A program made the position numbers and the translations under genes. This document shows, piece by piece, positions 14,406-31,182 of a DNA stretch of 64,000 nucleotides (position 1 is the stretch's first letter; each line of letters begins with the position of its first letter). Location: NCBI RefSeq assembly GCF_017313765.1, contig NZ_JAFLNC010000001.1, positions 558,001 through 622,000 on the forward strand, read 5' to 3'. The notes under the pieces are model-generated. The model saw only the letters and a list, made by a program, of their open reading frames with translations. It made no database searches and was not told the DNA's origin. The stretch is from Sneathiella sedimenti. GTDB lineage: Bacteria; Pseudomonadota; Alphaproteobacteria; Sneathiellales; Sneathiellaceae.

Positions 14406-14435
14406 ACCCGAATATACAATTTTTAGGTGTTTATT

Positions 14436-17400
14436 ATGATGCTTAAACCACAAATAAGTCTGCGCAGGATTGCGGCCTTTCCATTAGGCTTTAACGGCCA
14501 TTTCGACATTACTTTTCTTCAATGGATATATAGAACTCTGCTAGTTTTTACGTTATCCGTATCTCTGATCGTGACCCAGGTATTGTGGTCGGCGATGGCC
14601 GCTGCTGCGGGCCCCTACAACGCTTTGCCAGTTTCGGTAACCTCTGACAACTTGGAGGGGCCTTCCGTGACCACTGCAAGCCTGCAGCCATATGGTGCAG
14701 AAAACCCCGGGATCGTGGATCTCCCCAGCGGAAAAGTCAAATTCTCCCAGCCGCTTACAGTCTTGTCGGATGTTGGTCCGGGTTTCAACATTGATATGTT
14801 TTACTCAAGCCAGACGCCGGGATCTCTGGAGTCTGCCTCCGCAGCTACCGCCCGTGCGAATGCGGGGAATGGCTGGTCTGTTCCGGTCTTAAATCAGCGC
14901 ATTGTGAGACAACACAGCTCTGACACCAATGATCGAAACGACCGTTTCTTTCTGCAGGACGGGGAGCGCTCCGTCGAGCTGCTTCCGATTGGTCAAACAA
15001 TGCTCAATGACCGCCGTTTGAAGATATCCTTTACGACGACCGAGGGCGACAGCAGCATTATTAACTGGTATAGAAACGACTCCTTGCCAAATCCCGAAAA
15101 TATCCGCGACAGTAGTAAAGATGAGTACCTACCCAGCTATTGGGAAGTCATAAACAAATATGGTGAAATTTCCCGCTATGGAGATTACGAAAGCAAGTCT
15201 AGCATCCTCGCCAATAGAGCCATAAGCCCCTACGACATCGGGACGGCCAATAAGCAAAAAACAAGCGTTGCGGACCTTTCCGGTGGCGAGAAATCGGCTG
15301 CCCTTTGCGCCTTGATTACAGCAGGACGTCCGGCCTCCTGTCATTTCCTTGCCGTCGAACTCTCAAGTCAACCTGAAGACTCCAACTCATCCAGAAAGAT
15401 ATTCACTGAAAGCGCTTGGAACCTCGCAGAGCGGGAAGATCCGATCACCGGCATGGCGACAATATTATCATATGCCTGCTCTTTCGACGTTAATAGGCCG
15501 AATGCCTCTAGCACCTGCTTGCCTTACCAAGTCGCGTCAGCAGGTGGCAATGTTGTGTCATTCAATTATCAAATACCAACAATGGCAAGCAGGCCTGTTG
15601 ATCCGCTTTGCTCTAGTACACCCCAGGGAACCGACCGCACCGCGGAAGAAGTTATGCCTTCTTCGCAGGAAATTCTATTAACGGCCCTGGATGTATTCGC
15701 CGTATCGGCAAGAGCAAGAGCGAAAAAAACTATTCGGAAACTAGAAAGCACTGCTATTTCCTACTGCCCGCTAAGCTCGGGCAAGAATAAGGAAAACGTC
15801 GCCTACTTACCCTACGCAATCCGCTTTTTTACTGCGTCAAAGGGAGAGGCGATCCTCTCGGAACCAGCAACTCTCTTTGATTACTATACCACCGGAAATG
15901 ACGCGGACGAGAATGCCGCCCGGTACGGAGCCTTGAAATCCGTTACTAATCCATATGGCCAGCGCATTGTCATCTCATATCAACGGAATTTGATTGATTT
16001 ACAAACCGCATTTCTGGGAGAAAGTAATCATGCGTTTTGGGAAAATCCCAACAAGTCGGCGGAGGATTACACCGTCGCCTCCGTTTCCGTAGATAGCGGG
16101 TATCAATCTTCTTCCCTTTTCTATGATTATAATAGCGGCAAGCCCAATTCGCCGATTAAATATACCGCCCTGAACGGACATTCCATTATTTATCCCTCCG
16201 TGAAAATCATCTATGGCGATGTCAGACATCAGGCTGCGATCAGTTATATTGAAGCAGATTTTTATGCGGGAGATATGAGGAAAACGGTTCCTGAAATCTT
16301 CACGCTTAAAGATGCAGAAAATGGAGCGCGACCGAAAAATTCCGCTCTAACCGAGACATTGCTTAACGCAGCTCGCGGACTACCATACGAAACCCGAGTT
16401 GGTATCCGTGATGCGGATGGATCTGAATCAATTCATCGGCAGGTCAGCACGAAATATCTCGCTCTGCATGTCAGTCAACACGATAGCGAGGGAAAAGCCG
16501 TCGTTACCAAAAGAGCGATCCTGCCCTATGAACAGAAAGATGTTCGTTATGAACTTCATGGCGGCAAGGATAGCACTACCTCGGCCACCACAGTCAAAGT
16601 CCATACATATGACAATTATTTCCAGTCTTTATCAAACTCGACAACTACGACACAGTTCAACCACGGCTCAGAAGATGGCAAACCCACAATTGGGAATCAG
16701 GATATCTCGCAGTTAACAATAACTGAGTACATACTACGGGCCATTTTCGTAAAAGAATATGCGCCACACCTACTAAACCAGAACCGATTGAACGAGGTTT
16801 ATGCACGCATCACAACGGCGAAAAACGAGAGCTCTCCAGAGGTCATAAAAAAGGCCACAATCAACGGGTTTTCATCCTTCAACTCACCTGTAGCGGAGCA
16901 ACATGGGCCGCTAATCTCCAATATTAGTTACGAGCTAAGACTAGGAGAAAATTGGCAATCACCGGTGCAATTCCTGTTGGATTATCCACCAACGAAGGTT
17001 GTGGAGGACGAAAAATGGATGGCGGATTCCGAGATTATCCGGAGAGAATTGACGACGGGATATCCAATTGCCTCCCGGCTTGCCACTGGAGAGACGTATA
17101 AAACACTTTCCGCCTATGAAAATAGGAATGACCCTTCCTTAAGCTACCCAAGACGATATGAGTATGCCCATTTCGCTTTGGGAAAGGACGAAGGACAATC
17201 TTCGAATGTTGACGTTCCGGCCACCTATATCGGATTTGAAAAGTACGAGGACATTGCATTTGATGAACTGATAAATGTACTGCCAAGCTGCTCATCACAT
17301 GCGCTGGGAATCAGTGTTTCAGGCGGTGTACTGGCTCAAGGGCCTGATGCAAATTCAGGGAACAGGTACTGTGACAGATCGGTAAAGACAACAGCCGGTT

Positions 17401-20400
17401 CAAAATCACGCCCGCTTGCCGTCTCATTAAACTCAAATTTTGCACCCAAGAAAACCCAACCTTATGTCGTCAGTGCATGGGTGAGGCCGGTAAAAGGCGG
17501 TGTTTGTGACATACTTCCAGATGCAGATCTATTAGAAGAGGCTGTGCGCCGCAGTACCGCTTCAGACCATTATGCCGAAACCCTGTCCGCAAACCCAGAT
17601 GATGAAAAATGGTTTTACATAGAAGCGACGACGCCCAATGGCGCGGATATGGCACCAGGATCGACCCTGTTAACATGTGAAGGTGCTGTGGACGATATTC
17701 GCGTATCTCCCCTGGGCAGCAAGTTTAACGCAGTTGTTTATGATACAGATATTTCGTCGAGTAGTTACGGGTTGCCGATAGCATCCCATGCAGACAACGG
17801 GATGATATCTCGAGCGCTTTATGGCGACGACGGCAAAAAGGTTGCTGAGATGCTTCAGGATATTGACAAACCCCAATGTGCCCTCAGTTCACCGAATTGC
17901 CGATCGCTGCATACCCTTACAGACCTGTCCATAGCAAGCGGGATGAGCCGTTGGGAAGGCCATAACCGGCCCGCGCCTGACTTCCGCGCCAGTTTCAATC
18001 CTGCGATACCAAACCACGAATATTCCGGCATTGAGGCCCGCGGCACAAACACCGCTGCTTATTTCAAGGAAATACTAGGCAGCCAGAAAGTCACGATTAG
18101 GAACTCTGACAAATTCTTTGTCCGGTTCGATACAAAAACCCTAGGTGAAAAGGGTGTTTCACTGACCTTAGGGCCAACGGGTTCTGACACCCCCTCGAAA
18201 CTGGATATCCAGTTTGATAGGGAACTCATCGTCAAACTGAATGGTAAATCAATGGCTCTGCCGCCCGGAAAGAGGGTTGCCCCGGAGGAATTTCTGATTG
18301 CGGTGCATAACGCACTTTCTGGAAATCCTGCGTTAATCATTTTGGCCGATGGAAATTTGATCGTCAGTCACTTTCCACCCGCTAAAGGGGTTTCAGACAG
18401 TACAAGTGATGTTGCCGTTATGCTAACCGGGGATGAACTCAGGCAGATTATCTTTGCCCCCTGGGCAGGCACAGTTACTGCCTCCTATACTGACGGATCT
18501 GGACGCGTCATCGAAGATCATGCCCTTAGCGGGTTCCTTGGAACAGACAATGTTTTCCATTTCACAGATGTCGCCCACGCAAACTGGTATGGTGGGGACG
18601 GACAACAAAATTTAGTGTCGAAGCCGGTTGAATATACGGCGCCAGCTAGCCAGGATGCCTCTGTTCCGAAACATCGAAAATTTAGTCCCGGATATCCGAT
18701 TGGATCTCAAAAACTGATCCCGAACCTTCTGCAATTCCGTGGCGTGAAATACGCTACCAACCCTTCCAGGACTCAAGCCTCTCCTACTCCCATCCGTAAT
18801 TTTGGGGCAATTGATTGGTCCAGATTAACTCTATTCGCCAAGACTGAAAATTTACTCAGTTTCGACATAGCCTTTGATCCGAAAACCGGCGATGGGGAGG
18901 ATTTACATTATGCCATCCAATTCGGAACATCAAAAGCAAGCCCTGCCGTCAAGGGAGCGATGTCACGGATATCCAAATCTGAACAAAACCTTGCTTGGCA
19001 ACATGTTTCCGTTTCCGTGGACAGTCATAAAACCGGGAAGGAAACCTTGATCCGCGTGGAAGACAAGAGTGGAGACATTGCTCTGGGCAATGTTTATATC
19101 CGGAATCTACAATGGAACGGAGTCGACAGTATTCAATTTGCAAATAATCATGCTGGCGACGATAGGGATTTTCGCAAAAATCATACCTACACCAATGGAA
19201 TTCCCACAGTAAAGGTTGATCAAAAAAGCAGTTTGTTCGTTTTTTCGGGACTGCAAGACAGTTTGCTGACGGTTGGTCTGAATAGTTCCGATCTATACCA
19301 GTTTTACTCCGGTAAAAACCCTGGGCAACTCTGGTTCAGCAATGCAGACAAGGATGCAGTATTTGCGTTCGCAAACATCGATCATCGGGTAAATGCTCCT
19401 AGCCCTGGAACATCCGGTCAGTCAAGCAACGCGTTGTTGTCTCCCTATAAGGAAATGGAACAGAACCAACCTCCCTCTGGCTTCAGATACCGCGATCATG
19501 AATCTGTTTTCCCTCAAGGAAACGGCCTCCTTAGCTTCACACTGGAAGACGGGCTTGGAAACCCTGTTATCTCCGGCAAATCTTCACACAGCCCAAATGA
19601 TCAAATAACGAAGAACACCATGAAATTTGATGGCTTTGTATATGATTTAATGAAGAAGTCGCAAATTGCAGACAGCGTCGGAACAGCCGCACCGATAGGT
19701 TCTTACCGGGAAACCAGACTTCCGCTGTGGTATCAGGAAAACCACAAGTCAAGCGAGCTGGTGTCAGCGCAAACCATCCATAACACAACCTATGATCTAC
19801 TCGGCCACTGGACGTCACAACAGCGAACCGACTCGGCGGATCACAGCATCTTTACGGACCGCATTGGCCGCACAAGAATTATTGTCCGTGGGCCTGGATT
19901 CGACCAAAATATCAAGGAGCGCGCGCCCAAACAGATTGTCAGCTACTTTAAACGCGACACCTACGGTCGCCTTATTGAGAGTGGTCGGCTGAAAAATGTC
20001 AATTATACCGCGTTGCAGTGGATGTCGACGACAGCGGATTCCGCGTTTGATGACTCAAAATTACTGGACTTAAAGTCCTGCATCGTTGCTCAAAAAAAGT
20101 ACGATAGCTACAGCGATGTTCCATTGTACGCCAAGTCCTCAGGAAGCAACTCGCAAGCGAAGAATCTTTCCGCAGATACGAGGCTTCAGTCTAGTCTTCT
20201 AAACGGTCGAGGGTTAAGCATTGCTGAAATACAATATTCAAGAACCGTTTCCGAAAACGAGGACGGCTGGAACCAGAACGCCCTAACGGATGATGGATGC
20301 AATAACCAAAAGAATGATACAGAGGCAGGGTTAGGCAATTATGTTCTAACGACAGAAATATATGATCAATATGGCCGTCCTCTCCATGATTTCACAAATA

Positions 20401-22901
20401 TTGTCACTGTTGACGATCGCGGACTTAGAAACGGATCCCTCTACCTAAAATCCCATCAATTCGACTCTGACGGTAACTATATCAGAGTATTTTATCCTTC
20501 AGATGCCGACGGCAATTCGGGTGATTTTTCTATCACGGCACAGAAGGACCGCCTTGACCGGATTAGCTCTCTAACAAAAACAATTGGTGGTCAGTCTTCG
20601 CAATTATGGAAGGTGGCCGATTTCAGGTTTGGAGAACCGGTTTCAGAGATTTATGCGATGGGCACCGATAAAAACAAAGACCAAACGTATATAACGAAGG
20701 AGGTAAAATACAATTTTCAGAACATGCCGGTAGCAATCACTCAAAAAGACCAGGACGGCAAGCTGCTTTTGCTGGAAGAATTTGGGTATCTCAGCGACTT
20801 GGGGACACCCGGCACCCAAGCCCATAGGGCCTGTCATGACCTCAATCTCACACAGTACAGCTATAACCTAATTGCTTGGAAGCGGTTGTCCGGAGATGCC
20901 TGGTTTGACAAGGATGCTGTGTCAGACCTGCAATCGAACAGCGATGAACGGTGTTATGGATATGACGGGGATGGACAACTCACAAAAATCGTACGAGTGC
21001 TAAACGAAGAGAAAAACACCCGAAGCGACCTGCAGATAGAGACATTCCAGTATGATGAGAATGGCAATATCGTTCAAAAGCATAGCCGTAAGCTCGTTGC
21101 CCTGAATGAGGCCAATACACCAGAGTATCTCTGCGAAAGTAGGCTCTTTGAACTGGACAATGACGGCAATTCCATCGCCCAAGCATCCTATAATTCTGGC
21201 GTCTGCAGCAATAATTCGGGCGACACAAGTAATTCAGGTGACAACCCTGGGAATCCCGGGTTTGAGCGAGATAACACTGATCGTAAATCTAACTTCAGCT
21301 ATGACACACGCTACGGCACTTTAAATACATTCGCCACTCCAGATATCGACAAAGTTGTGATTACGCGGGATGCGGACGGTATCCGGCCTGTAAATGTCGC
21401 ATTTCAATCACGCGATGCTGAAGGTAGCTTTAAGTTCCAGGATGGCCCGGACGGACGCGCCGTTGAAATAAAAACGGTTGGCGAAACGCAGACAAGCCGG
21501 CATTTCGTAAGGGCGGGCTTCATCCGACCTATCGCGGAATTCCAGACGAATGCGAAAAATACGTCTGTTACCTACAGTCTGCCTGGTGGAGGACAGTATA
21601 ATGCGGAGACCGGAATGACATTTTTCCCGGTTAAGGACTATCTGAATTCGACACGCGGTATACTCCAGCAGGGCGAAATCGTTGCCAAGTATGATTACGA
21701 TATTACCGGCAAGCCGACGGTAACGGACAGCTGTTACGGAACCTGCGAGGCCGGGCAGTACGAGTATCTTTACCAGGGGCAGCGGTTTCTTGAGTTTGGT
21801 GCTGATAAACAGAATACTTTGGCCGGCCTTTATGCTTTCCCCGCACGGCTATATGATCCAGACCAAATGCGCTGGGCATCTCTTGATGAGGCGTTTGACA
21901 GCATTTCTCCTTATACAGCCATGGCCAATAACTGGGTGAATTTTACGGATCCGGACGGCAATGTTGTTACATTTTGGATCGCCGTGGGGTTAGCCGGTTT
22001 TACAGGAGCAACTTTGGCCGTTGGCGCGTTGTTTAGAAACAGCTCGTCAACCAATATGGCGTTGACGACCATCCGGGCCTTAAACGCCGCACAATTGCAC
22101 TACAAAGGATTTCTGATAATTCACATTGTGAGGGAAGGACTGATTGCCTTTGGCCCCCGCCCGCAATTCGACCGGGTTCTGCATATACTCCAGGTTCCCG
22201 TCAATATGATGCTGCTCTTGACGTTCCTGTTAATGACCAAGAACTGGGTCACAGGAGGTCGACCGAGCGTTACCGGTACGACCCCCCGCTACAATCGGGG
22301 AAGCTGGCGACAGATTGCCGGGGTCATCCTGTCAAAAACAGCCTGGCAGGCTATTATCGGATATGCGTCCTACCGAGGGATTGGCGCACAAGCGGTTATC
22401 ACCGTATACCCGGCTTTGGTTTTGGGCGAACTCAGCTATATGCTTGCCGCTCACCAATTCAGGATTAGACAGAGAAGCGATTTTTGGGCCGATCCGGATG
22501 TCCCGGCCTCAATTGCATCTGTGATGAACTCGAGGAGGGCTTCGTTCCTGTATGGAATGTCCGGGGCGACGGTATCCACTCTCGTTCTTGGCGGTATGTG
22601 GCAAGGCTATGAGAACCCGCCTCCGACACGCTATTGGGGGCATCGCCAAGGCCTCGTTTCAGGACAAGCCGGAATTGCCTGGAATGCCTTAACTATGATC
22701 GTTGTCGAGGGAATAATTTATGTTTTCTGGATAGGGACCCAGGAAGCCCTGTACAGAATTCTGGTGATCAGGCACCGGAATTCATTTCCCCGCGATCCAA
22801 TTCCGATACCAATGCCTGTGGATGAACTTAATCTGGAAGATTTTGTTCCTGCAACCAGACTTCAAATAGAGACGCAACCGTTTCAGGAGGACGATGAATA
22901 A
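14436..22901 (+). CDS. Giant secreted RHS/YD-repeat protein with a polytopic membrane C-terminal domain
   Basis: A protein of about 2821 residues. ATG 14436 (or 14439) is preferred over GTG 14427 because AGG lies at a suitable distance. A hydrophobic segment near residues 33-58 ending SAMAAAAG looks like a long Sec signal. The N-terminal third has the RHS/SpvB-like pattern DLPSGKVKFSQPL then GNGWSVPVL. YD-type repeats follow from about residue 1780 (DLLGHWTSQQ, DTYGRLIESG, YDQYGRPLHD, YDGDGQLTKI, YDENGNIVQK, YDITGKPTVT). The RHS core ends with AFPARLYDPDQMRWASLDE and NNWVNFTDPDGN near residue 2509. The last ~310 residues hold six or seven hydrophobic helices and match nothing I know. By analogy with polymorphic toxins this tail would be the effector domain (inference). 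No immunity gene is seen downstream. Confidence 0.85.
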   Translation: MMLKPQISLRRIAAFPLGFNGHFDITFLQWIYRTLLVFTLSVSLIVTQVLWSAMAAAAGPYNALPVSVTSDNLEGPSVTTASLQPYGAENPGIVDLPSGKVKFSQPLTVLSDVGPGFNIDMFYSSQTPGSLESASAATARANAGNGWSVPVLNQRIVRQHSSDTNDRNDRFFLQDGERSVELLPIGQTMLNDRRLKISFTTTEGDSSIINWYRNDSLPNPENIRDSSKDEYLPSYWEVINKYGEISRYGDYESKSSILANRAISPYDIGTANKQKTSVADLSGGEKSAALCALITAGRPASCHFLAVELSSQPEDSNSSRKIFTESAWNLAEREDPITGMATILSYACSFDVNRPNASSTCLPYQVASAGGNVVSFNYQIPTMASRPVDPLCSSTPQGTDRTAEEVMPSSQEILLTALDVFAVSARARAKKTIRKLESTAISYCPLSSGKNKENVAYLPYAIRFFTASKGEAILSEPATLFDYYTTGNDADENAARYGALKSVTNPYGQRIVISYQRNLIDLQTAFLGESNHAFWENPNKSAEDYTVASVSVDSGYQSSSLFYDYNSGKPNSPIKYTALNGHSIIYPSVKIIYGDVRHQAAISYIEADFYAGDMRKTVPEIFTLKDAENGARPKNSALTETLLNAARGLPYETRVGIRDADGSESIHRQVSTKYLALHVSQHDSEGKAVVTKRAILPYEQKDVRYELHGGKDSTTSATTVKVHTYDNYFQSLSNSTTTTQFNHGSEDGKPTIGNQDISQLTITEYILRAIFVKEYAPHLLNQNRLNEVYARITTAKNESSPEVIKKATINGFSSFNSPVAEQHGPLISNISYELRLGENWQSPVQFLLDYPPTKVVEDEKWMADSEIIRRELTTGYPIASRLATGETYKTLSAYENRNDPSLSYPRRYEYAHFALGKDEGQSSNVDVPATYIGFEKYEDIAFDELINVLPSCSSHALGISVSGGVLAQGPDANSGNRYCDRSVKTTAGSKSRPLAVSLNSNFAPKKTQPYVVSAWVRPVKGGVCDILPDADLLEEAVRRSTASDHYAETLSANPDDEKWFYIEATTPNGADMAPGSTLLTCEGAVDDIRVSPLGSKFNAVVYDTDISSSSYGLPIASHADNGMISRALYGDDGKKVAEMLQDIDKPQCALSSPNCRSLHTLTDLSIASGMSRWEGHNRPAPDFRASFNPAIPNHEYSGIEARGTNTAAYFKEILGSQKVTIRNSDKFFVRFDTKTLGEKGVSLTLGPTGSDTPSKLDIQFDRELIVKLNGKSMALPPGKRVAPEEFLIAVHNALSGNPALIILADGNLIVSHFPPAKGVSDSTSDVAVMLTGDELRQIIFAPWAGTVTASYTDGSGRVIEDHALSGFLGTDNVFHFTDVAHANWYGGDGQQNLVSKPVEYTAPASQDASVPKHRKFSPGYPIGSQKLIPNLLQFRGVKYATNPSRTQASPTPIRNFGAIDWSRLTLFAKTENLLSFDIAFDPKTGDGEDLHYAIQFGTSKASPAVKGAMSRISKSEQNLAWQHVSVSVDSHKTGKETLIRVEDKSGDIALGNVYIRNLQWNGVDSIQFANNHAGDDRDFRKNHTYTNGIPTVKVDQKSSLFVFSGLQDSLLTVGLNSSDLYQFYSGKNPGQLWFSNADKDAVFAFANIDHRVNAPSPGTSGQSSNALLSPYKEMEQNQPPSGFRYRDHESVFPQGNGLLSFTLEDGLGNPVISGKSSHSPNDQITKNTMKFDGFVYDLMKKSQIADSVGTAAPIGSYRETRLPLWYQENHKSSELVSAQTIHNTTYDLLGHWTSQQRTDSADHSIFTDRIGRTRIIVRGPGFDQNIKERAPKQIVSYFKRDTYGRLIESGRLKNVNYTALQWMSTTADSAFDDSKLLDLKSCIVAQKKYDSYSDVPLYAKSSGSNSQAKNLSADTRLQSSLLNGRGLSIAEIQYSRTVSENEDGWNQNALTDDGCNNQKNDTEAGLGNYVLTTEIYDQYGRPLHDFTNIVTVDDRGLRNGSLYLKSHQFDSDGNYIRVFYPSDADGNSGDFSITAQKDRLDRISSLTKTIGGQSSQLWKVADFRFGEPVSEIYAMGTDKNKDQTYITKEVKYNFQNMPVAITQKDQDGKLLLLEEFGYLSDLGTPGTQAHRACHDLNLTQYSYNLIAWKRLSGDAWFDKDAVSDLQSNSDERCYGYDGDGQLTKIVRVLNEEKNTRSDLQIETFQYDENGNIVQKHSRKLVALNEANTPEYLCESRLFELDNDGNSIAQASYNSGVCSNNSGDTSNSGDNPGNPGFERDNTDRKSNFSYDTRYGTLNTFATPDIDKVVITRDADGIRPVNVAFQSRDAEGSFKFQDGPDGRAVEIKTVGETQTSRHFVRAGFIRPIAEFQTNAKNTSVTYSLPGGGQYNAETGMTFFPVKDYLNSTRGILQQGEIVAKYDYDITGKPTVTDSCYGTCEAGQYEYLYQGQRFLEFGADKQNTLAGLYAFPARLYDPDQMRWASLDEAFDSISPYTAMANNWVNFTDPDGNVVTFWIAVGLAGFTGATLAVGALFRNSSSTNMALTTIRALNAAQLHYKGFLIIHIVREGLIAFGPRPQFDRVLHILQVPVNMMLLLTFLLMTKNWVTGGRPSVTGTTPRYNRGSWRQIAGVILSKTAWQAIIGYASYRGIGAQAVITVYPALVLGELSYMLAAHQFRIRQRSDFWADPDVPASIASVMNSRRASFLYGMSGATVSTLVLGGMWQGYENPPPTRYWGHRQGLVSGQAGIAWNALTMIVVEGIIYVFWIGTQEALYRILVIRHRNSFPRDPIPIPMPVDELNLEDFVPATRLQIETQPFQEDDE

Positions 22902-23125: not shown

Positions 23126-23153
23126 TTGACTTAAAAGAAACAACTGCTAATTT
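23126..23153 (+). promoter_or_regulatory. Candidate sigma-70 promoter of the amide operon
   Basis: TTGACT at 23126-23131 and TAATTT at 23148-23153 are separated by 16 bp. This would start RNA at about 23160, which is exactly the first arm of the ANTAR-type hairpin. No sigma-54 -24/-12 element is visible. Confidence 0.5.
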
Positions 23154-23158
23154 TATAG

Positions 23159-23235
23159 TACGCATTGAAGCGTAGAAAATTGTAAGCGACGTAGCTGAAC
23201 ACCATTCAATTGGGTGATGCTTGTCGCTTTTTTGT
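23159..23235 (+). promoter_or_regulatory. Antitermination leader: ANTAR-type hairpin plus intrinsic terminator
   Basis: The first hairpin is TACGC-ATTGAA-GCGTA (23159-23174). Its six-base loop has A first and G fourth, the known signature of RNAs bound by ANTAR proteins such as AmiR, NasR and EutV. A terminator follows, with AAGCGAC (23184-23190) paired to GTCGCTT (23223-23229), inner pairing AGC/GCT and CACC/GGTG, then T5-G-T5. A second hairpin inside the terminator, CATTCA-ATTGGG-TGATG (23203-23219, one bulged T), also has an A1/G4 six-base loop and competes with the CACC/GGTG arm. The operon encodes its own ANTAR protein at its far end. Confidence 0.7.
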
Positions 23236-23278
23236 TTTTGTGTTCGGTCGCGTCCAAATTAACAGGAGGACGTGGTTA

Positions 23279-24487
23279 ATGAAAACAATTCTATCAGGAG
23301 TTTGCGCACTCGCGCTTACGGCAAGCCTATCTATGGGAACCGCAGTTGCCGGCACCAAGATTGGCGCAATTTTTGACCTGACCGGCGGTCTGAACATATA
23401 TGGTATTCAACAGAACAATGCCCTGCAATTGGCTGTTGAAGAAATTAATGCTAACGGCGGCGTGTTGGGCGAACCCATTGAAGTTGTCTCGTATGACGCA
23501 CAGTCAGAACTCAGTAAATATACCCAGTTTGCCAACACGGCCATTCTCCGTGACAAGATCACCGCACTCTTCGCGGGTTTAACGAGTTCATCCCGCGAAG
23601 CCATCCGGCCCATCGTACGCAAAGCCAACATTCCCTATTTCTATTCTTCCCTCTATGAGGGCGGCGCTTGCGACAAGGTAACCTTCGTGACCGGTTCATC
23701 GGCCTCACAGCAAATGTCTAAATTGATCGAATGGGGCGTAAGCACATACGGGCCGAAAATTTACATTATGGCTCCAGATTATAATTTCGGTACAATTTCT
23801 GCCCATTGGGTCCATGAATACGCTACGCGAAATGGCGGCGAGGTTGTTGGAGAAGATTTCCTGCCTCTCACCGTTTCTGATTACGCGCCAACCCTTCAGA
23901 AAATTCAGGCTGCAAAGCCGGACTTCGTCGTGGCCCTTCCGGTCGGCGCCAACCAAACAGGCTTTCTAGAACAGTTCGCAGCCGCGGGCCTGAAAGACCG
24001 CATTGGTATTGTTTCCACCAATTATGGTTCGGGCAACCAACAAGTCGTTGTCTCTCCTCAGGCCGGTAAGGGCATTATTGCAAGTGCTGGTTACTTCATG
24101 GAAGTGGCGAACGATCAGAACGCCGAATTCGTAAAAAAATGGCAGGCTAAGTACGGCACGGATACGCCTATCGTTTCCGGCGCCGTGGACGTCTGGAATG
24201 CCGTTCATCTGTGGGCATTGGCAGTAAACAAGGCAAATTCTTCGGAGACCGAAGCTGTCATCAGTGCCTTGGAGAGCGGCCTAAGCTTTGACGCTCCGAA
24301 TGGTAAGGTGTCCTTGGACTCCAAATCCCACCACTTGAACCAGAACATCTACATTGCAGAAGGTAATGCAGATCACGGCTTCGATATCCTGGTTACGTTT
24401 ACGGACGTACCCGCCGTCTTCGAAGCGGACAAATGCGACCTGGTTAAAGATCCCGGGTTGGCAGAGCATTTTACACCTGAAAGCTGA
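23279..24487 (+). CDS. Periplasmic amide/urea-type ABC transporter binding protein
   Basis: The 402-residue solute-binding protein is of the type I (LivJ/AmiC/UrtA/FmdD) fold. It has a clear Sec signal, MKTILSGVCALALTASL ending GTAVAG, and a mature start TKIGAIFDLTGGLNIYG. The lobes carry LAVEEINANGGVLGEPIEVVSYD, GLTSSSREAIRPIVRK and IYIMAPDYNFG. ATG 23279 is chosen because AGGAGGA lies 8 bp upstream and the signal peptide starts there; a longer in-frame start at 23210 would sit inside the terminator hairpin. It resembles the cytosolic sensor encoded at 29462. Short amides or urea are likely ligands (inference from the AmiC/AmiR and amidase context). Confidence 0.9.
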   Translation: MKTILSGVCALALTASLSMGTAVAGTKIGAIFDLTGGLNIYGIQQNNALQLAVEEINANGGVLGEPIEVVSYDAQSELSKYTQFANTAILRDKITALFAGLTSSSREAIRPIVRKANIPYFYSSLYEGGACDKVTFVTGSSASQQMSKLIEWGVSTYGPKIYIMAPDYNFGTISAHWVHEYATRNGGEVVGEDFLPLTVSDYAPTLQKIQAAKPDFVVALPVGANQTGFLEQFAAAGLKDRIGIVSTNYGSGNQQVVVSPQAGKGIIASAGYFMEVANDQNAEFVKKWQAKYGTDTPIVSGAVDVWNAVHLWALAVNKANSSETEAVISALESGLSFDAPNGKVSLDSKSHHLNQNIYIAEGNADHGFDILVTFTDVPAVFEADKCDLVKDPGLAEHFTPES

Positions 24488-24544: not shown

Positions 24545-25405
24545 ATGGATTATTTTGCGACGGTATTAATTTCATCGCTCTCGAGTGCATCAATCTTATT
24601 GATCGCAACACTCGGACTGGCTGTAGTGTTCGGCTTGATGGGCGTGATTAACTTGGCGCATGGTGAGTTTATCATGATGGGCGCCTACTCTGCGCTTACC
24701 GCCACGCAGCTGGGCATCCCCTTTATTCTAGCTATTCCGGTTGCAGTGCTGGTGACAATGGTCTTCGGCGCGCTCGTGGAAATAATCATTATTAGGCGCC
24801 TGTACGGAAGACTGTTTGACACAATGCTGGCCACCTGGGGACTAAGCTTGGCTCTCTATCAAGGCGCGGTGTTGATCTTTGGCTCGGTTTCTCCGGGAAT
24901 TGGCATGCCCCAAATTAACTTCAACGTCGGAGACTATACTCTGGCGGCTTATCCAATATTCATGATTCTCGTTGCCGCCGTAATGCTTGCAGGCATTTAT
25001 GCCCTTCTTACACGGACTGTCTACGGCATGAAGGCACGCGCTGCCATTCAGGTGCCTGATATGGCGCGGGCAATAGGAATCGATTCCGCTCGAACAAATA
25101 CGCTGACGTTCGCCATTGGTTGCGGACTGGCCGGGTTTGCCGGAGCAATCCTCCTCCCAATTGTTCCGGCAACCCCCTCGATGGGCTTTGCATTTGTGAT
25201 CAAGGCATTTTTGACTGTTGTCATTGCCGGACCGGTTACTCTTGCAGGAAGTGCACTGGCCGCTATTGGCGTGGGTACCGGCGCCAGCGTTGTCGCCAGC
25301 TTCATGACATCAGTTGCTGGCGACCTTTTCTTCTTCATCCTGACTGTTGTCCTGCTACGGCTATACCCCCTGGGGGTTTCCGCCAAGTGGCGTATTAAGC
25401 TTTAG
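24545..25405 (+). CDS. LivH/UrtB-type ABC transporter permease
   Basis: A 286-residue inner-membrane permease of the branched-chain amino acid/urea importer class. It has about eight hydrophobic helices, the LivH hallmark GLMGVINLAHGEFIMMGAYSA near the start, and the cytoplasmic coupling region KARAAIQVPDMARAIGID. ATG 24545 (MDYFATV) is preferred, with GGAAAAG upstream; the frame also runs back to 24500, but that start would lie in the hairpin. It forms the membrane channel together with the permease half of the next gene. Confidence 0.92.
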   Translation: MDYFATVLISSLSSASILLIATLGLAVVFGLMGVINLAHGEFIMMGAYSALTATQLGIPFILAIPVAVLVTMVFGALVEIIIIRRLYGRLFDTMLATWGLSLALYQGAVLIFGSVSPGIGMPQINFNVGDYTLAAYPIFMILVAAVMLAGIYALLTRTVYGMKARAAIQVPDMARAIGIDSARTNTLTFAIGCGLAGFAGAILLPIVPATPSMGFAFVIKAFLTVVIAGPVTLAGSALAAIGVGTGASVVASFMTSVAGDLFFFILTVVLLRLYPLGVSAKWRIKL

Positions 25406-25414
25406 GGGGTAAAC

Positions 25415-27253
25415 ATGGAGCACAATCTAACAACCGCCGAAAAAATTCATGGATCAATCGGCATTTCAGCGCCCACAATCGCCGTTATTATCGCCCTTGG
25501 CATTTCCGGAATGCTTGACCCCTATTTGGCGTATGTCGCGTCCTTGTGGGTAATATATGGTCTTCTGGGTATGAGCCTTGATTTGGTTTGGGGCCGCGGA
25601 GGTGTCCTGAGTCTCGGTCAAACCGCCTTTTACGGATTAGGCGGCTATTTTGGCTCAGTTGTCGCTATCAACTTCTCCGAACTTACAGGCAACAGCCTTA
25701 TCTGGGCGTTGCCAACAGGGGCGGCTTGTGGTGCCCTGTCTGCGGCTGTGATCGGATATCTGATATTCTACGCCCGCACCGGACCTCTTCAGACGACAAT
25801 CCTTACCTATACGTTCACCATCTTGTTATGGACGTTGTCACAGTCCTTCAAGATTACCATCGGAGAAGCCAAAATTGGTGGTGACAACGGCATGGCCAAT
25901 ATTCCCGGCATGATTTTGGACTTCGGCGAGGATGCGACCACGCTCGAGCCAAATGCAATGTTTGCAACTGTGGTTGTTATTTCCGCAGTCATATATTTCG
26001 CCGTACGTCTACTCATGAGCGGTCCTTTCGGCAGAGTAGTTGACTGCATCCGGATCGACGGGGAGAAAACAGAGCTACTTGGCTACGATATCCGGAAATA
26101 TCAGCTGCAGAATTTTATGATTGCCGGTGCCATCGCAGGTATAGCCGGAGCTTTGTTCGCAGCCTGGTCAAATTACCTCAACCCCTCGATTTTCTCAGTT
26201 CAGGAAGCATTGATGGTGCCGATATATGTTTTGGTCGGCGGTGCCGGAACTTTGTCAGGTGCATTTATCGGATCCGTGCTTATCGGCGGATTGTCGTTTT
26301 GGCTCGGTGGCGGCGCCATCAGCGGCCAAACCACACTCATTTTAGGATTGGTGTTGATTGTCCTCGTGATCTTCCTGAAAAACGGCATTCTTGGGGCGCT
26401 GAATAGCTTATGGCTGCGTTTTCTTCCTGATCGCAATCGGGCGGTACACTCCATCAAGCCCGTAACGATAGATGCGTCGGTCGTGGAAAATATTCTAGCT
26501 GACGCGGAAGTCGCGGCAGGCCCGCCAAAATCCCTGGAGACGAAAAATGCCACCAAGGCATTTGGTGGCGTTATACCTGTCAACGACGTATCGCTGAAAT
26601 TTGAGCCCGGCATCCCCCATTCTGTTATTGGTCCGAATGGCGCGGGAAAAAGTTCCTTCCTTAAAGTCTGCGTCGGGATGTATCCGCCGGATTCCGGGGA
26701 CGTCCTGCTCGGCGGCGAAAACGTCTCGCATTCGCCTATTTTCCAATGCGTTGCCAAAGGGTTGGGAGTTAAGAACCAAAAACCTCAGGTATTTGGCGAG
26801 TTGTCCATTTTCGAAAATTTATGGACCGCCGCCTTTTCGATGACGCGCGACAAGAACAAAGCCAACCAGATCGCCGATCAAATTCTAACCATGCTGGGCA
26901 TGCATGAACAGGGAAATGTGGAAGCATCCGCCCTGTCTCACGGGCAGCAGCAATGGCTGGATATCGGTATGGTGCTCTGCCTGACTCCGCGAACTATTCT
27001 GTTCGATGAACCCGCGGCCGGGATGACGAATGAGGAAACCCGCGAACTATCTCACCTGGTTAGAATTCTCGCGAAGAAAACAACGGTCCTGGTAGTAGAG
27101 CATGACATGGAATTTGTACGCACCCTGGACGGAATGGTGACAGTCCTTCACCAAGGTGCGTTTTTCGCGAAGGGCGATATCGTAAAATTGCGAGCCGATG
27201 ACCGAGTTCTGGATATCTATTTGGGGAGGCGCGCACATGTTCAAAGTATCTGA
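25415..27253 (+). CDS. Fused LivM-type permease and LivG-type ATPase
   Basis: A 612-residue fusion. Residues 1 to about 330 are a polytopic LivM/UrtC-like permease (GMSLDLVWGRGGVLSLGQTAFYG, VGGAGTLSGAFIGS). After a linker rich in charged residues, residues 365-612 are an ABC ATPase with Walker A GPNGAGKSS, signature LSHGQQQWLDIG, Walker B ILFDEPAAGM and the switch His in VVEHDMEF. In most relatives these are separate proteins, though such fusions are known in this transporter family. The frame is continuous across the junction. It pairs with LivH (previous gene) and LivF (next gene, overlapping by 17 bp). Confidence 0.92.
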   Translation: MEHNLTTAEKIHGSIGISAPTIAVIIALGISGMLDPYLAYVASLWVIYGLLGMSLDLVWGRGGVLSLGQTAFYGLGGYFGSVVAINFSELTGNSLIWALPTGAACGALSAAVIGYLIFYARTGPLQTTILTYTFTILLWTLSQSFKITIGEAKIGGDNGMANIPGMILDFGEDATTLEPNAMFATVVVISAVIYFAVRLLMSGPFGRVVDCIRIDGEKTELLGYDIRKYQLQNFMIAGAIAGIAGALFAAWSNYLNPSIFSVQEALMVPIYVLVGGAGTLSGAFIGSVLIGGLSFWLGGGAISGQTTLILGLVLIVLVIFLKNGILGALNSLWLRFLPDRNRAVHSIKPVTIDASVVENILADAEVAAGPPKSLETKNATKAFGGVIPVNDVSLKFEPGIPHSVIGPNGAGKSSFLKVCVGMYPPDSGDVLLGGENVSHSPIFQCVAKGLGVKNQKPQVFGELSIFENLWTAAFSMTRDKNKANQIADQILTMLGMHEQGNVEASALSHGQQQWLDIGMVLCLTPRTILFDEPAAGMTNEETRELSHLVRILAKKTTVLVVEHDMEFVRTLDGMVTVLHQGAFFAKGDIVKLRADDRVLDIYLGRRAHVQSI

Positions 27254-27936: not shown

Positions 27937-28095
27937 ATGACGCAGAAAATACCTTTATCCGAACAGCAAAAACATCATATCGAGGCGACCCTCAAGAGAA
28001 TTACAGAAGGGCTAGCAAAAAAATGCGATCCAGATCTGGAGCCGTCTCATATCTTTAATCCGGAGGCGTTTAGTGAGAAAAGAGTTGAGCGTTGA
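27937..28095 (+). CDS. AtzG/DUF4089-like small amidase partner (52 aa)
   Basis: A tiny protein starting MTQKIPLSEQQKHHIEATLK and ending around LEPSHIFNPEAF. The combination of a short helical body and a C-terminal EPxxxFxPE tail is the DUF4089/AtzG pattern, a GatC-like small subunit that wraps an AtzE-type amidase. ATG 27937 starts 1 bp after the LivF stop, and its end overlaps the amidase GTG by 23 bp. The position directly before the amidase supports the call. It is shorter than the roughly 68-residue AtzG, so this is a family-pattern assignment, not a proven homology. Confidence 0.65.
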   Translation: MTQKIPLSEQQKHHIEATLKRITEGLAKKCDPDLEPSHIFNPEAFSEKRVER

Positions 28096-29449
28096 GAAGA
28101 GCTGGACTGTCAGTTCTCAGTCCAAGGCAATGGCGGCCGGCGATGTTTCGGCAATGGAATTAGCGAACGTCGCGCTGGGGTTGGCCGCAGATAAGACTGT
28201 CCTGAATGCCATTGTGTCACTGGATCCGGAAATTGTTCGCCAGCAGGCTGCTGCGTCGGATGTACGCCGGAAATCCGGTAAACTTTTGAGCGAGATTGAT
28301 GGCGTTTGCATCGCAGTGAAAGATAACTTTTGGACAAAAGATTATCCCACGACGGCCTGTTCGAATGCGGCACCCATATATCCGGAGAATGTAGATTCAT
28401 CGGTTGTGGAAAAACTTCGGTCTGCGGGTGCCGTAATTTTTGCCAAGACTAACATGCATGAATGGGCATATGGCGCAACAAATGGAACGTCCAGTATAGG
28501 CCCCACAAGGAACCCCCATAACGTCGAGCATATTACCGGGGGAAGCAGCGGAGGTTCTGCGGCGGTGGTTGCCGCCGGAATTGTACCTGCTGCCTTAGGA
28601 AGCGATACCGGCGGGTCGGTCCGCATTCCATCCGGGGCCTGCGGGATTTATGGATTTAAACCTAGCTACGGCCGTGCGTCACGGCATGGTGTATTGCCGT
28701 TATCCTGGTCATTGGATGCGCCGGGTCTGATGGCCACTACATTACATGACCTTGAACTTCTACTTCCGTATTTCATCGGCGCTGATCAGGCGGATAGAAC
28801 CACGATCCATTCCAAACCCTACACATCGGGCAAAACCATCGAGCACCCAAGGCTCGTCAATCTTGTTGGCACAGGACTGGAGCGGAGTGAGGAAGTCGAT
28901 GCAACGCTCAATCATGCCCTGCGGCAGGTTCAAGCATTTGCAGAAATTCATACAGGTGAAATACCGGACCTCGGCTCCTACTTCGCGGCGTGGGAGGCAA
29001 TCCTTCACGCCGAAGCCACCAGCTTTCATGCCGAACAGCTTGCCAATGACCCCTCCGGATATAGCTCGGTCACCCGATCACATCTCGAGGCTGGAAAATT
29101 GTTGTCGGCGACCGAGTTATTAAAAGCACAACAATTGCGAACTGAGTTTTGCCGTGCAATAGATGAGCTATTGAAAAATGCGGACGCGTTGGTATTGCCA
29201 ACCCTCCCCGTCACCGCGCCAAAACTTGGTGAAGACTGGCAGGAGTTCGGGAATTTGCGGGTTACAAGTCAGGACAGCATGACGTGGTTTTGCTGGCTCG
29301 GCAATCTTGCAGGTCTTCCCTGTCTCTCGATCCCTTGCGGACTATCCAGCGCAGGCCTGCCAGTCGGCATGATGTTAATGGGCTGCGCGGGAGAGGACGA
29401 AAAACTGTTTAATGCGGCACGTAAGTTGGATTTAGCCATAAATCCTTGA
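28073..29449 (+). CDS. Amidase signature family hydrolase
   Basis: The 458-residue enzyme hydrolyses C-N amide bonds with a Ser-cisSer-Lys triad. The Lys is in AVKDN (Lys83), the cis-Ser in GGSSGGSAAVVAAG (about Ser158), and the nucleophile in GSDTGGSVRIPSG (about Ser182). FKPSYGRASRHGVLPLSWSLD is also typical. The GTG start at 28073 is supported by CGGAGG 8 bp before it and by overlap with the AtzG-like gene. The neighbours suggest it hydrolyses what the transporter imports, possibly an AtzE-like substrate, but aliphatic amides and other small amides are equally possible. Confidence 0.92.
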   Translation: MRKELSVEKSWTVSSQSKAMAAGDVSAMELANVALGLAADKTVLNAIVSLDPEIVRQQAAASDVRRKSGKLLSEIDGVCIAVKDNFWTKDYPTTACSNAAPIYPENVDSSVVEKLRSAGAVIFAKTNMHEWAYGATNGTSSIGPTRNPHNVEHITGGSSGGSAAVVAAGIVPAALGSDTGGSVRIPSGACGIYGFKPSYGRASRHGVLPLSWSLDAPGLMATTLHDLELLLPYFIGADQADRTTIHSKPYTSGKTIEHPRLVNLVGTGLERSEEVDATLNHALRQVQAFAEIHTGEIPDLGSYFAAWEAILHAEATSFHAEQLANDPSGYSSVTRSHLEAGKLLSATELLKAQQLRTEFCRAIDELLKNADALVLPTLPVTAPKLGEDWQEFGNLRVTSQDSMTWFCWLGNLAGLPCLSIPCGLSSAGLPVGMMLMGCAGEDEKLFNAARKLDLAINP

Positions 29450-29461
29450 TAGGATAGAGAT

Positions 29462-30598
29462 ATGAAACAGAGCCCGTTCAGCTTTGGAGTCTTGTTCTCG
29501 CAATCAGGGACAATGGCAGTAACCGAAACCGCGCATCTACAGGGAATTCTTCTCGCCTGCGAAGAAATAAACAACGCGGGCGGCATCAACAACCGGTTGC
29601 TTGATCCGATAATTCTTGATCCGAAGAGTGATGCGTCCACATACGCGCGAATGACGACAGAATTGCTATTGCGCCATAACGTCAATGTTATATTCGGATG
29701 CTGTCTCTCCTCAAGCCGAAAGCGTGTATTGCCAATCGTAGAAAGGTTCAATGGCGTGCTCTTCTATCCTTCGGTCTATGAAGGGTTTGAGTATTCCCCA
29801 AATGTGATTTATGGGGGCGCCACGCCTAACCAGATGATCATTCCGCTATTGGAATATTTATTTACCAAAGGCCAGAAAAAGGCGGTCCTCATTGGAACGG
29901 ATACTCTTTTTGCACGCGAAATCAACCGGATCGTCGCCGAGTTCTTATCAGAAAGCGGCGGTTCTTTTGTTACAAAGAATTATGTCCCGCTGGGCACCCC
30001 AAAAGAGGCATTTAGAAATATCGCGCTGCGTACCATTGAAAGCCAGCCTGACATAATTCTCTCAACCTTTGTCGGGGGCGAAATTCGAAAATTCTATGAA
30101 AGCTTTTCGGAATTATCGGAAAGTCACAAGTTGCCCCAAATTGCCTCCCTTACGACAACAGAGTCGGAATTGGCGCTTCTTCCGGAATCCGCGCGCGCAG
30201 GGCATTTGACGGTTTCCTCCTACTTTGGTTCGGAAGATGATCAGCCGAACCAGAAGTTTGTCGAGCTCTATAAATCGAAATTTGGAAACTCGCGACAGCC
30301 AAGCGTATATACACAGACGACTTACAATCAAATCCACATGCTTTCCGAGGCTTTGAAATGGTCAGCGAGCGACTCAACCGAAGATATCCTGAGCTCTCTA
30401 TCCAGCGTTTCCCTTGAGGTGCCTGGTGGGCGAATTTCTCTGGACAGCAATACAAATCATACTATTCTTAAACGCCTGATAGGCGAGTCAAACAAAAATG
30501 GTGAGTTCAAAATAGTTTGGAGCAGCCCGGACTTTGTTAACCCTGATCCTTACTTGATGAGCTATGACCGTCTGATTGTTGCTAATAGGATGACATGA
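29462..30598 (+). CDS. amiC: AmiC-like cytosolic amide sensor
   Basis: The 378-residue protein has the periplasmic-binding fold (FGVLFSQSGTMAVTETAHLQG, ACEEINNAGGINNRLLDPIILD, YPSVYEGFEYSPNVIYGGATPNQ) but no signal peptide, so it stays in the cytosol. In Pseudomonas, AmiC binds AmiR and silences it until an amide is bound. The Tyr-rich YPSVYEGFE region and GATPNQ correspond to the family's ligand site. Its stop overlaps the next start as ATGA (30595-30598), which fits 1:1 production with the AmiR partner. The gene symbol is by similarity of fold and context. Confidence 0.88.
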   Translation: MKQSPFSFGVLFSQSGTMAVTETAHLQGILLACEEINNAGGINNRLLDPIILDPKSDASTYARMTTELLLRHNVNVIFGCCLSSSRKRVLPIVERFNGVLFYPSVYEGFEYSPNVIYGGATPNQMIIPLLEYLFTKGQKKAVLIGTDTLFAREINRIVAEFLSESGGSFVTKNYVPLGTPKEAFRNIALRTIESQPDIILSTFVGGEIRKFYESFSELSESHKLPQIASLTTTESELALLPESARAGHLTVSSYFGSEDDQPNQKFVELYKSKFGNSRQPSVYTQTTYNQIHMLSEALKWSASDSTEDILSSLSSVSLEVPGGRISLDSNTNHTILKRLIGESNKNGEFKIVWSSPDFVNPDPYLMSYDRLIVANRMT

Positions 30599-31182
30599 CC
30601 GACTCAGAGATATCTATTCTGAGAACTTTGCGGAAAACTCGAACGCTCGTCTTACACCCTGATGACGAGGATGGCGTAGCTTTGACACGCCACTTGGTGC
30701 GCGTCGGTTGTGTCGCTGACCGGGTATGGCCGGCACCATCCGAATTGCCACAGGAAGTTAATGTTGTCCTGTTTCTTCTTAGCCCGGACGAAGATAGCAA
30801 TTCTTATGAATGGATGAGCTCGGAAGCAGATGTCGCCCGCATTGCGATCATATCCTACGAGACACCTGAAATCCTTGTTCAACTGGACAAGCTGAATGCT
30901 CATAGTATTTTAACGAAACCTATCCGACACTTCGGTGTTCTTGCCGCTGTTACGAATTCCATTCAGGTTTCCAATCATATTGCGCGTCTTCGGCGGCGAA
31001 TTCGCCTGCAAGACGAAACCCTCAAAGGGCGGCGAAAAGTCGAAACGGCTATCGGTATTCTCAGAAAGTCCAGGGGAATTTCTGAGGAGGAAGCCTATCG
31101 TCTGCTAAGGGAAAAATCGATGAGGGATCGCATCCCGATCAGCGAACTTGCGGAAGCATTTATCGTTTCCAGCGACCTTTAG
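30595..31182 (+). CDS. amiR: AmiR-like ANTAR transcription antiterminator
   Basis: The 195-residue protein has an N-terminal degenerate receiver-like domain (RTLVLHPDDEDGVALTRHL) without a clear phosphoacceptor set. A coiled-coil follows (HIARLRRRIRLQDETLKGR), then a C-terminal ANTAR domain, about residues 130-190, with VETAIGILRKSRGISEEEAYRLLREKSM. ANTAR proteins bind paired hairpins in leader RNA and stop terminators forming. A fitting target precedes the first gene of this operon. Translation is coupled to the sensor gene through ATGA. Confidence 0.92.
   Translation: MTDSEISILRTLRKTRTLVLHPDDEDGVALTRHLVRVGCVADRVWPAPSELPQEVNVVLFLLSPDEDSNSYEWMSSEADVARIAIISYETPEILVQLDKLNAHSILTKPIRHFGVLAAVTNSIQVSNHIARLRRRIRLQDETLKGRRKVETAIGILRKSRGISEEEAYRLLREKSMRDRIPISELAEAFIVSSDL

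What the first reader, a model, noticed from the sequence alone, without database searches (positions are those of the whole stretch)
23159..23235. ANTAR antitermination leader controlling an operon that encodes its own AmiC/AmiR pair
Seen: hairpin TACGC-ATTGAA-GCGTA with an A1/G4 six-base loop, then an intrinsic terminator (AAGCGAC/GTCGCTT plus T run), then the binding-protein gene. A second A1/G4 hairpin with loop ATTGGG lies inside the terminator. Known: ANTAR proteins bind paired six-base-loop hairpins and prevent termination. Inferred: the AmiR-like protein encoded 7.4 kb downstream reads this leader, giving amide-induced positive feedback. The 28-base gap between the hairpins and the nesting of the second one are unusual compared with the simple tandem layout.
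Basis: partly seen in the sequence, partly recalled or inferred. Interest (0 to 1): 0.75.

Follow-up and report, generated by a model that had tools for sequence, protein, structure and literature searches.

The report
RNA switch heading an amidase operon
This is a short RNA switch in a marine Sneathiella bacterium that lets the cell read through to its urea/amide uptake and amidase genes when its AmiC/AmiR sensor pair detects the substrate; it is a conserved example of a known kind, with one of its two hairpins at a different place than first thought and a slightly unusual loop.

Summary
The leader is real and is almost certainly an ANTAR antitermination leader. The true P2 is AGC-GACGTA-GCT at 23185-23196, 10 nt after P1, and it overlaps the terminator's 5' arm: textbook topology, not a nested one with a 28-nt gap. 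Seven orthologous operons keep P1 and P2; P1 has two fully compensated pairs, and no shuffle reached the covariation score. A model built without the window or its near twin finds the site at E=2e-8 (next match 0.36). The genome encodes one ANTAR protein, the AmiR ending this operon. Only the 5 of 25 genus genomes with this AmiR ortholog match the leader model strongly. Similar dual hairpins with terminators lie downstream of amiR in most of 17 distant amiC-amiR loci scanned. Deviation from the 2012 definition: P2 loop position 1 is G here, and A, G or T across AmiR-linked leaders. Promoter spacing suggests P1 sits at the transcript's 5' end. Operon-borne AmiC/AmiR feedback is already known from Pseudomonas amiE.

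The parts
23126..23130 (+). TTGAC, conserved -35-like element; puts the expected transcription start at about 23160
   Evidence: identical in all 7 orthologous leaders, 34,34,35,35,35,35,38 nt before the P1 core; -10 is weak, no experimental start site
23159..23174 (+). P1 hairpin TACGC-ATTGAA-GCGTA (core 23160-23173), loop A1/G4
   Evidence: two fully compensated pairs among 7 orthologs, 100% of core cells paired
23175..23184 (+). 10-nt linker GAAAATTGTA
   Evidence: sequence; canonical range 5-12 nt in E. faecalis eut (PMC3369931)
23185..23196 (+). P2 hairpin AGC-GACGTA-GCT, the antiterminator; loop G1/G4; overlaps the terminator 5' arm
   Evidence: conserved in orthologs; forcing it abolishes the terminator
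23184..23239 (+). intrinsic terminator: AAGCGAC(23184-23190)/GTCGCTT(23223-23229) plus U-rich tail 23230-23239
   Evidence: terminator-like stem plus T-run in the orthologs
23279..24487 (+). UrtA/AmiC-like periplasmic binding protein (first gene of operon)
   Evidence: Peripla_BP_6 7.2e-80; TIGR03669 urea_ABC_arch 360 bits, below cut-off
24545..25405 (+). permease, UrtB-like
   Evidence: PF02653, TIGR03622/TIGR03409, below cut-off
25415..27253 (+). permease-ATPase fusion, UrtC-UrtD-like
   Evidence: PF02653 + PF00005
27198..27935 (+). ATPase, UrtE-like
   Evidence: PF00005, TIGR03410 242 bits, below cut-off
27937..28095 (+). 52-aa ORF conserved before the amidase in the orthologous operons
   Evidence: no Pfam match
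28073..29449 (+). amidase-signature hydrolase (AtzE/GatA-like)
   Evidence: PF01425 4.1e-96; AtzE family 285 bits, below cut-off
29462..30598 (+). AmiC-like sensor protein (no signal peptide evident in the sequence, so probably cytoplasmic)
   Evidence: Peripla_BP_5 1.4e-107; P. aeruginosa AmiC 1pea/1qo0 3.2e-67
30595..31182 (+). AmiR-like ANTAR antiterminator, the only ANTAR protein over cut-off in the genome
   Evidence: AmiR_N 9.1e-30, ANTAR 2.2e-14; 1qo0 AmiR 1e-22; genome search

Best explanation
An AmiR-type ANTAR antitermination leader. Transcription starts at about the foot of P1. Without inducer, the AmiC-like protein holds AmiR, the strong terminator (23184-23239) forms, and most transcripts stop before the transporter genes. 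When AmiC binds its ligand (probably a small amide or urea-like compound), AmiR is released. Its ANTAR dimer recognises the hexaloops of P1 (23159-23174) and P2 (23185-23196). Stabilised P2 uses up the terminator's 5' arm, so polymerase reads on through the urea/amide ABC transporter, amidase, amiC and amiR. Because amiC and amiR are the last two genes, induction raises the regulator pair as well. Shown here: structure, conservation, covariation, mutual exclusivity in silico, a single ANTAR protein in the genome, and co-occurrence. Inferred: protein binding, the ligand, the start site and the feedback.
For: Seven orthologous leaders keep both hairpins: 95.9% of cells paired, covariation 0.381 versus 0.181 in shuffles (0/500 reach it), and slid controls at most 0.095. 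The jack-knife model without the window and S. litorea finds 23159-23198 at E=2e-8, next 0.36. With the full model it is the only strong site in the 3.58-Mb genome, E=2.9e-10, next 0.79. Within the genus, 5 of 25 genomes match strongly (E < 1e-6) and these are the five with the AmiR ortholog; the full model was built from these leaders, so the informative part is the lack of a strong match in the other 20. There is only one ANTAR protein over the cut-off in the genome. Forced P2 removes the terminator, -27.8 to -17.0 kcal/mol. Dual hairpins with an overlapping terminator lie after amiR and before the transporter genes in distant loci L035, L104-L109, L143, L147, L148, L150, L151, L153, L155 and L156. 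AmiR and AmiC match the solved P. aeruginosa complex 1qo0. Linker and topology match the published mechanism.
Against: P2 has only three pairs, two of them invariant, so covariation for P2 rests on one pair (A-U to U-A in L033; unpaired in L030; L025 is scored unpaired because of a one-column misalignment). P2 loop position 1 is G, whereas mutating A1 lowered induction in E. faecalis eutP. S. chinensis P1 loop ATATGG lacks G4. The predicted start-site spacing could trim the P1 foot. No published ANTAR covariance model was available here, and Rfam gave no match. No experimental data.
Confidence: 0.87

Rival explanations
1. One reading: P2 is TCA-ATTGGG-TGA (23206-23217) nested between the terminator arms, about 30 nt after P1.
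For: The string has an A1/G4 hexaloop and three pairs.
Against: Forcing it leaves the outer terminator stem paired, so it cannot antiterminate by exclusion. No A1/G4 hexaloop is found in the terminator interior of the five diverged orthologs. In eutP, lengthening the linker to 14 nt or by 20 nt strongly reduced or abolished antitermination (PMC3369931, PMC8934654).
Confidence: 0.03
2. An ordinary terminator/attenuator with a 5'-terminal protective hairpin, read by no ANTAR protein.
For: P1 would sit at the predicted 5' end, where stable hairpins can protect transcripts (inference).
Against: Conserved loop identities, short linker, P2 overlap with the terminator, co-occurrence with AmiR and the same layout beside distant amiC-amiR genes.
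Confidence: 0.07
3. An ANTAR leader read by a different ANTAR protein, such as NasT.
For: Other ANTAR proteins, probably NasT-like, exist in other genomes of the genus.
Against: This genome has a single ANTAR protein over the cut-off, the operon's own AmiR; genus members that have only other ANTAR proteins lack a strong leader match.
Confidence: 0.02

Closest known systems
Pseudomonas aeruginosa amiE leader with AmiC/AmiR (PMC3369936, PMC3369931)
   Same: AmiC-like sensor, AmiR with pseudo-receiver and ANTAR domain, leader with P1 and P2 overlapping the terminator, regulator genes inside the controlled operon
   Different: Controls a urea-type ABC transporter plus an amidase-signature enzyme instead of the nitrilase-type AmiE (the latter from general knowledge); P2 loop starts with G; amiC-amiR are the last genes, amiR 7.4 kb downstream
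Enterococcus faecalis eut leaders read by EutV (PMC3369931, PMC8934654)
   Same: Dual hexaloop RNA, 10-nt linker inside the 5-12 nt range, P2 exclusive with the terminator
   Different: EutV is phosphorylated by EutW; AmiR is expected to be held by AmiC; A1 is present in both eut loops
amiC-amiR loci of other Pseudomonadota found here (L035, L104-L109, L143-L156)
   Same: Same dual hairpin plus terminator
   Different: There the leader lies between amiR and the transporter genes (plus one upstream of amiC in L109), so amiC-amiR are outside that leader's transcript

Membership tests
ANTAR-target RNA (dual hexaloop antiterminator) | Two short stems (at least 3 bp) with six-base loops | tested here: met
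   P1 5 bp, P2 3 bp; conserved in orthologs
ANTAR-target RNA (dual hexaloop antiterminator) | A at position 1 and G at position 4 of both loops (strict 2012 form) | tested here: not met
   P1 loop ATTGAA meets it; P2 loop GACGTA has G4 but G at position 1. In AmiR-linked leaders P2 position 1 is A, G or T
ANTAR-target RNA (dual hexaloop antiterminator) | Hexaloops with a single point variation tolerated, linker 2-25 nt (relaxed form, PMC8164766) | tested here: met
   One deviating position, linker 10 nt
ANTAR-target RNA (dual hexaloop antiterminator) | P2 overlaps and excludes the 5' arm of an intrinsic terminator | tested here: met
   23185-23196 overlaps 23184-23190; forced P2 abolishes the terminator
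ANTAR-target RNA (dual hexaloop antiterminator) | Match to the published ANTAR covariance model | not tested
   That model is not held here; Rfam 15 gave no match; own jack-knife model used instead
ANTAR-target RNA (dual hexaloop antiterminator) | Bound by an ANTAR protein that causes read-through | not testable with these tools
   Needs biochemistry
AmiC-AmiR regulatory pair | AmiR_N pseudo-receiver plus ANTAR domain, beside an AmiC-type binding protein | tested here: met
   amiC and amiR overlap by 4 bp

The most novel reading that the evidence does not exclude
AmiR-type ANTAR proteins read the two hairpins unequally: in P1 the first loop base is mostly A, while in P2 it may be A, G or T with only G4 kept. 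Together with a P1 that starts at about the first transcribed base, this would mean that P1 is the recruitment site and P2 a loosely specified hand-off site, as the 2022 EutV structural model suggests.
Probability: 0.25. Interest if true: 0.45.

Novelty: new variant of a known kind. Interest (0 to 1): 0.32.

Why it matters
It adds a well-supported, self-contained ANTAR system (one protein, one strong RNA site in the genome) in Sneathiella that controls urea/amide uptake. It also suggests that the A1 rule for the second hairpin is relaxed in AmiR-linked leaders, so strict A1/G4 searches will miss real sites or, as here, pick a wrong hairpin.

Tried and rejected
Rfam gave only a chance sroH match. 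The simple promoter/terminator scan found no terminator, probably because of its loop limit of 8 nt, and its promoter hit (TTAAAA/TATAGT) is not the conserved TTGAC. Model R1 did not recover the more distant AmiR leaders above chance; a structure-only scan of the amiR-downstream gaps did, although several gaps gave extra hits (up to six).

Full report
What is in the sequence. Between a large upstream ORF (14427-22901) and an ATG at 23279 lies a leader with hairpin P1 (TACGC-ATTGAA-GCGTA, 23159-23174) and an intrinsic terminator (23184-23239). The region folds with z = -2.68 against dinucleotide shuffles, 1 of 200 folding as well. The operon that follows encodes a UrtA-like binding protein, UrtB-like and fused UrtCD-like subunits, a UrtE-like ATPase, a 52-aa protein, an amidase-signature enzyme, an AmiC-like protein and an AmiR-like ANTAR protein. 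amiC follows the amidase by 12 bp and overlaps amiR by 4 bp. The genome is Sneathiella: the nearest named relative found is S. litorea, AmiR 96% identical.

The second hairpin. Aligning seven orthologous leaders (window, S. litorea L028, S. chinensis L029, Sneathiella MAG L030, L025, L031, L033) shows that the most conserved block after P1 is GCgACGyaGCtGAAC, the 5' arm of the terminator. It contains a small hexaloop hairpin: AGC-GACGTA-GCT in the window (23185-23196), AGC-GACGTA-GCT (L029), GC-GACGCA-GC (L030), AGC-GACGCT-GCT (L025), AGC-AACGCA-GCT (L031), TGC-AGCGCA-GCA (L033). Linkers are 10-15 nt. Linkers in E. faecalis eut are 5-12 nt, and changes to 3, to 14 or by +20 nt impair antitermination there (PMC3369931, PMC8934654).

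Covariation and chance. P1 has two pairs with full compensatory changes (A-U/G-C and C-G/U-A) and no broken core cells. For the whole structure the covariation score is 0.381, against 0.181 for shuffles (0/500) and at most 0.095 for slid partners. P2 contributes one compensated pair and two invariant ones. An independent model without the window and S. litorea scores the window site 42.3 bits, E = 2e-8, next best 0.36. The full motif with terminator occurs once in the window; the shuffle expectation is 0.06, with the caveat that the loop pattern was set after seeing the orthologs. In the whole genome there is one strong match (E = 2.9e-10, next 0.79).

Mechanism test in silico. Forcing P2 (23185-23196) removes the terminator and costs about 11 kcal/mol, which protein binding or co-transcriptional kinetics must supply. 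Only the former is an antiterminator by exclusion.

Which protein reads it. The genome has one ANTAR protein over the family cut-off, the AmiR at 30595-31182. In 25 genomes of the genus, strong leader matches (E < 1e-6) occur in exactly the five with this AmiR ortholog. Nine others have only other ANTAR proteins, probably NasT-like, and no strong match. Part of the positive result is circular because those leaders built the model; the negatives are not. AmiR and AmiC align over nearly their length with P. aeruginosa AmiR and AmiC of structure 1qo0.

Distant loci. Scanning 17 gaps downstream of amiR in other Pseudomonadota without any constraint on loop sequence finds dual hexaloop + overlapping terminator candidates in all of them. 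By eye the candidate is convincing in about 14 (L146 and L149 have no clear P1, and L150 has several candidates). No shuffled control was run for this gap scan, and several of these genomes are close relatives of one another. The best P2 loops keep G4, but their first base is A, G or T. The P1 loop is mostly A1/G4 with exceptions (GGGGAT in three relatives, AGGAAT and AGGATT). So the strict A1 rule does not hold for P2 here. In these loci amiC-amiR lie upstream of the leader; in the Sneathiella-type operon they lie at its end, so feedback through this leader is specific to that layout. P. aeruginosa also has amiC and amiR inside the amiE operon (PMC3369936), so feedback of this kind is not new.

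Start site. TTGAC (23126) is present in all seven leaders at 34-38 nt before the P1 core although the sequence between varies. Window and S. litorea are 119/120 identical from the first P1 core base to the ATG but only about 57-63% identical upstream. Both suggest that transcription starts at about the foot of P1. The outer core pairs of P1 are the ones that covary, so they are probably transcribed. This is inference; no start site is mapped.

Verdict. A conserved, AmiR-read ANTAR leader. Novelty is modest: a variant P2 loop and the operon content. It is filed as a variant because the strict A1/G4-in-both-loops form was tested and not met, although the relaxed published definition is.

Noticed in passing
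window 27937-28095: A 52-aa ORF directly before the amidase gene is conserved in the orthologous operons (32-98% identity) and matches no Pfam family; its place recalls atzG before atzE in the atzDGEHF cyanuric acid operon (PMC6219798).
   Followed up: partly
window 23126-23160: TTGAC at a nearly constant 34-38 nt before P1 in seven orthologs, and a sharp change from about 60% to 99% identity with S. litorea at the first base of the P1 core: the transcript probably begins at P1.
   Followed up: partly
L025 and L030 leaders: P1 and P2 loops share GACG, so P1 could also pair with the terminator 3' arm; the forced-P2 fold shows this, a possible second antiterminating interaction.
   Followed up: no
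window 14427-22901: A 2824-aa ORF upstream of the leader looks like a large RHS/YD-repeat type protein; not tested.
   Followed up: no
L109 around 10777 (minus strand): A second dual-hairpin plus terminator lies upstream of amiC in this genome, so there both amiC-amiR and the transporter may be under ANTAR control from separate leaders.
   Followed up: no
L031 (MAG contig labelled Candidatus Endobugula): The operon in L031 is close to the Sneathiella-type operon although the bin is labelled as a different lineage: mis-binning or horizontal transfer.
   Followed up: no
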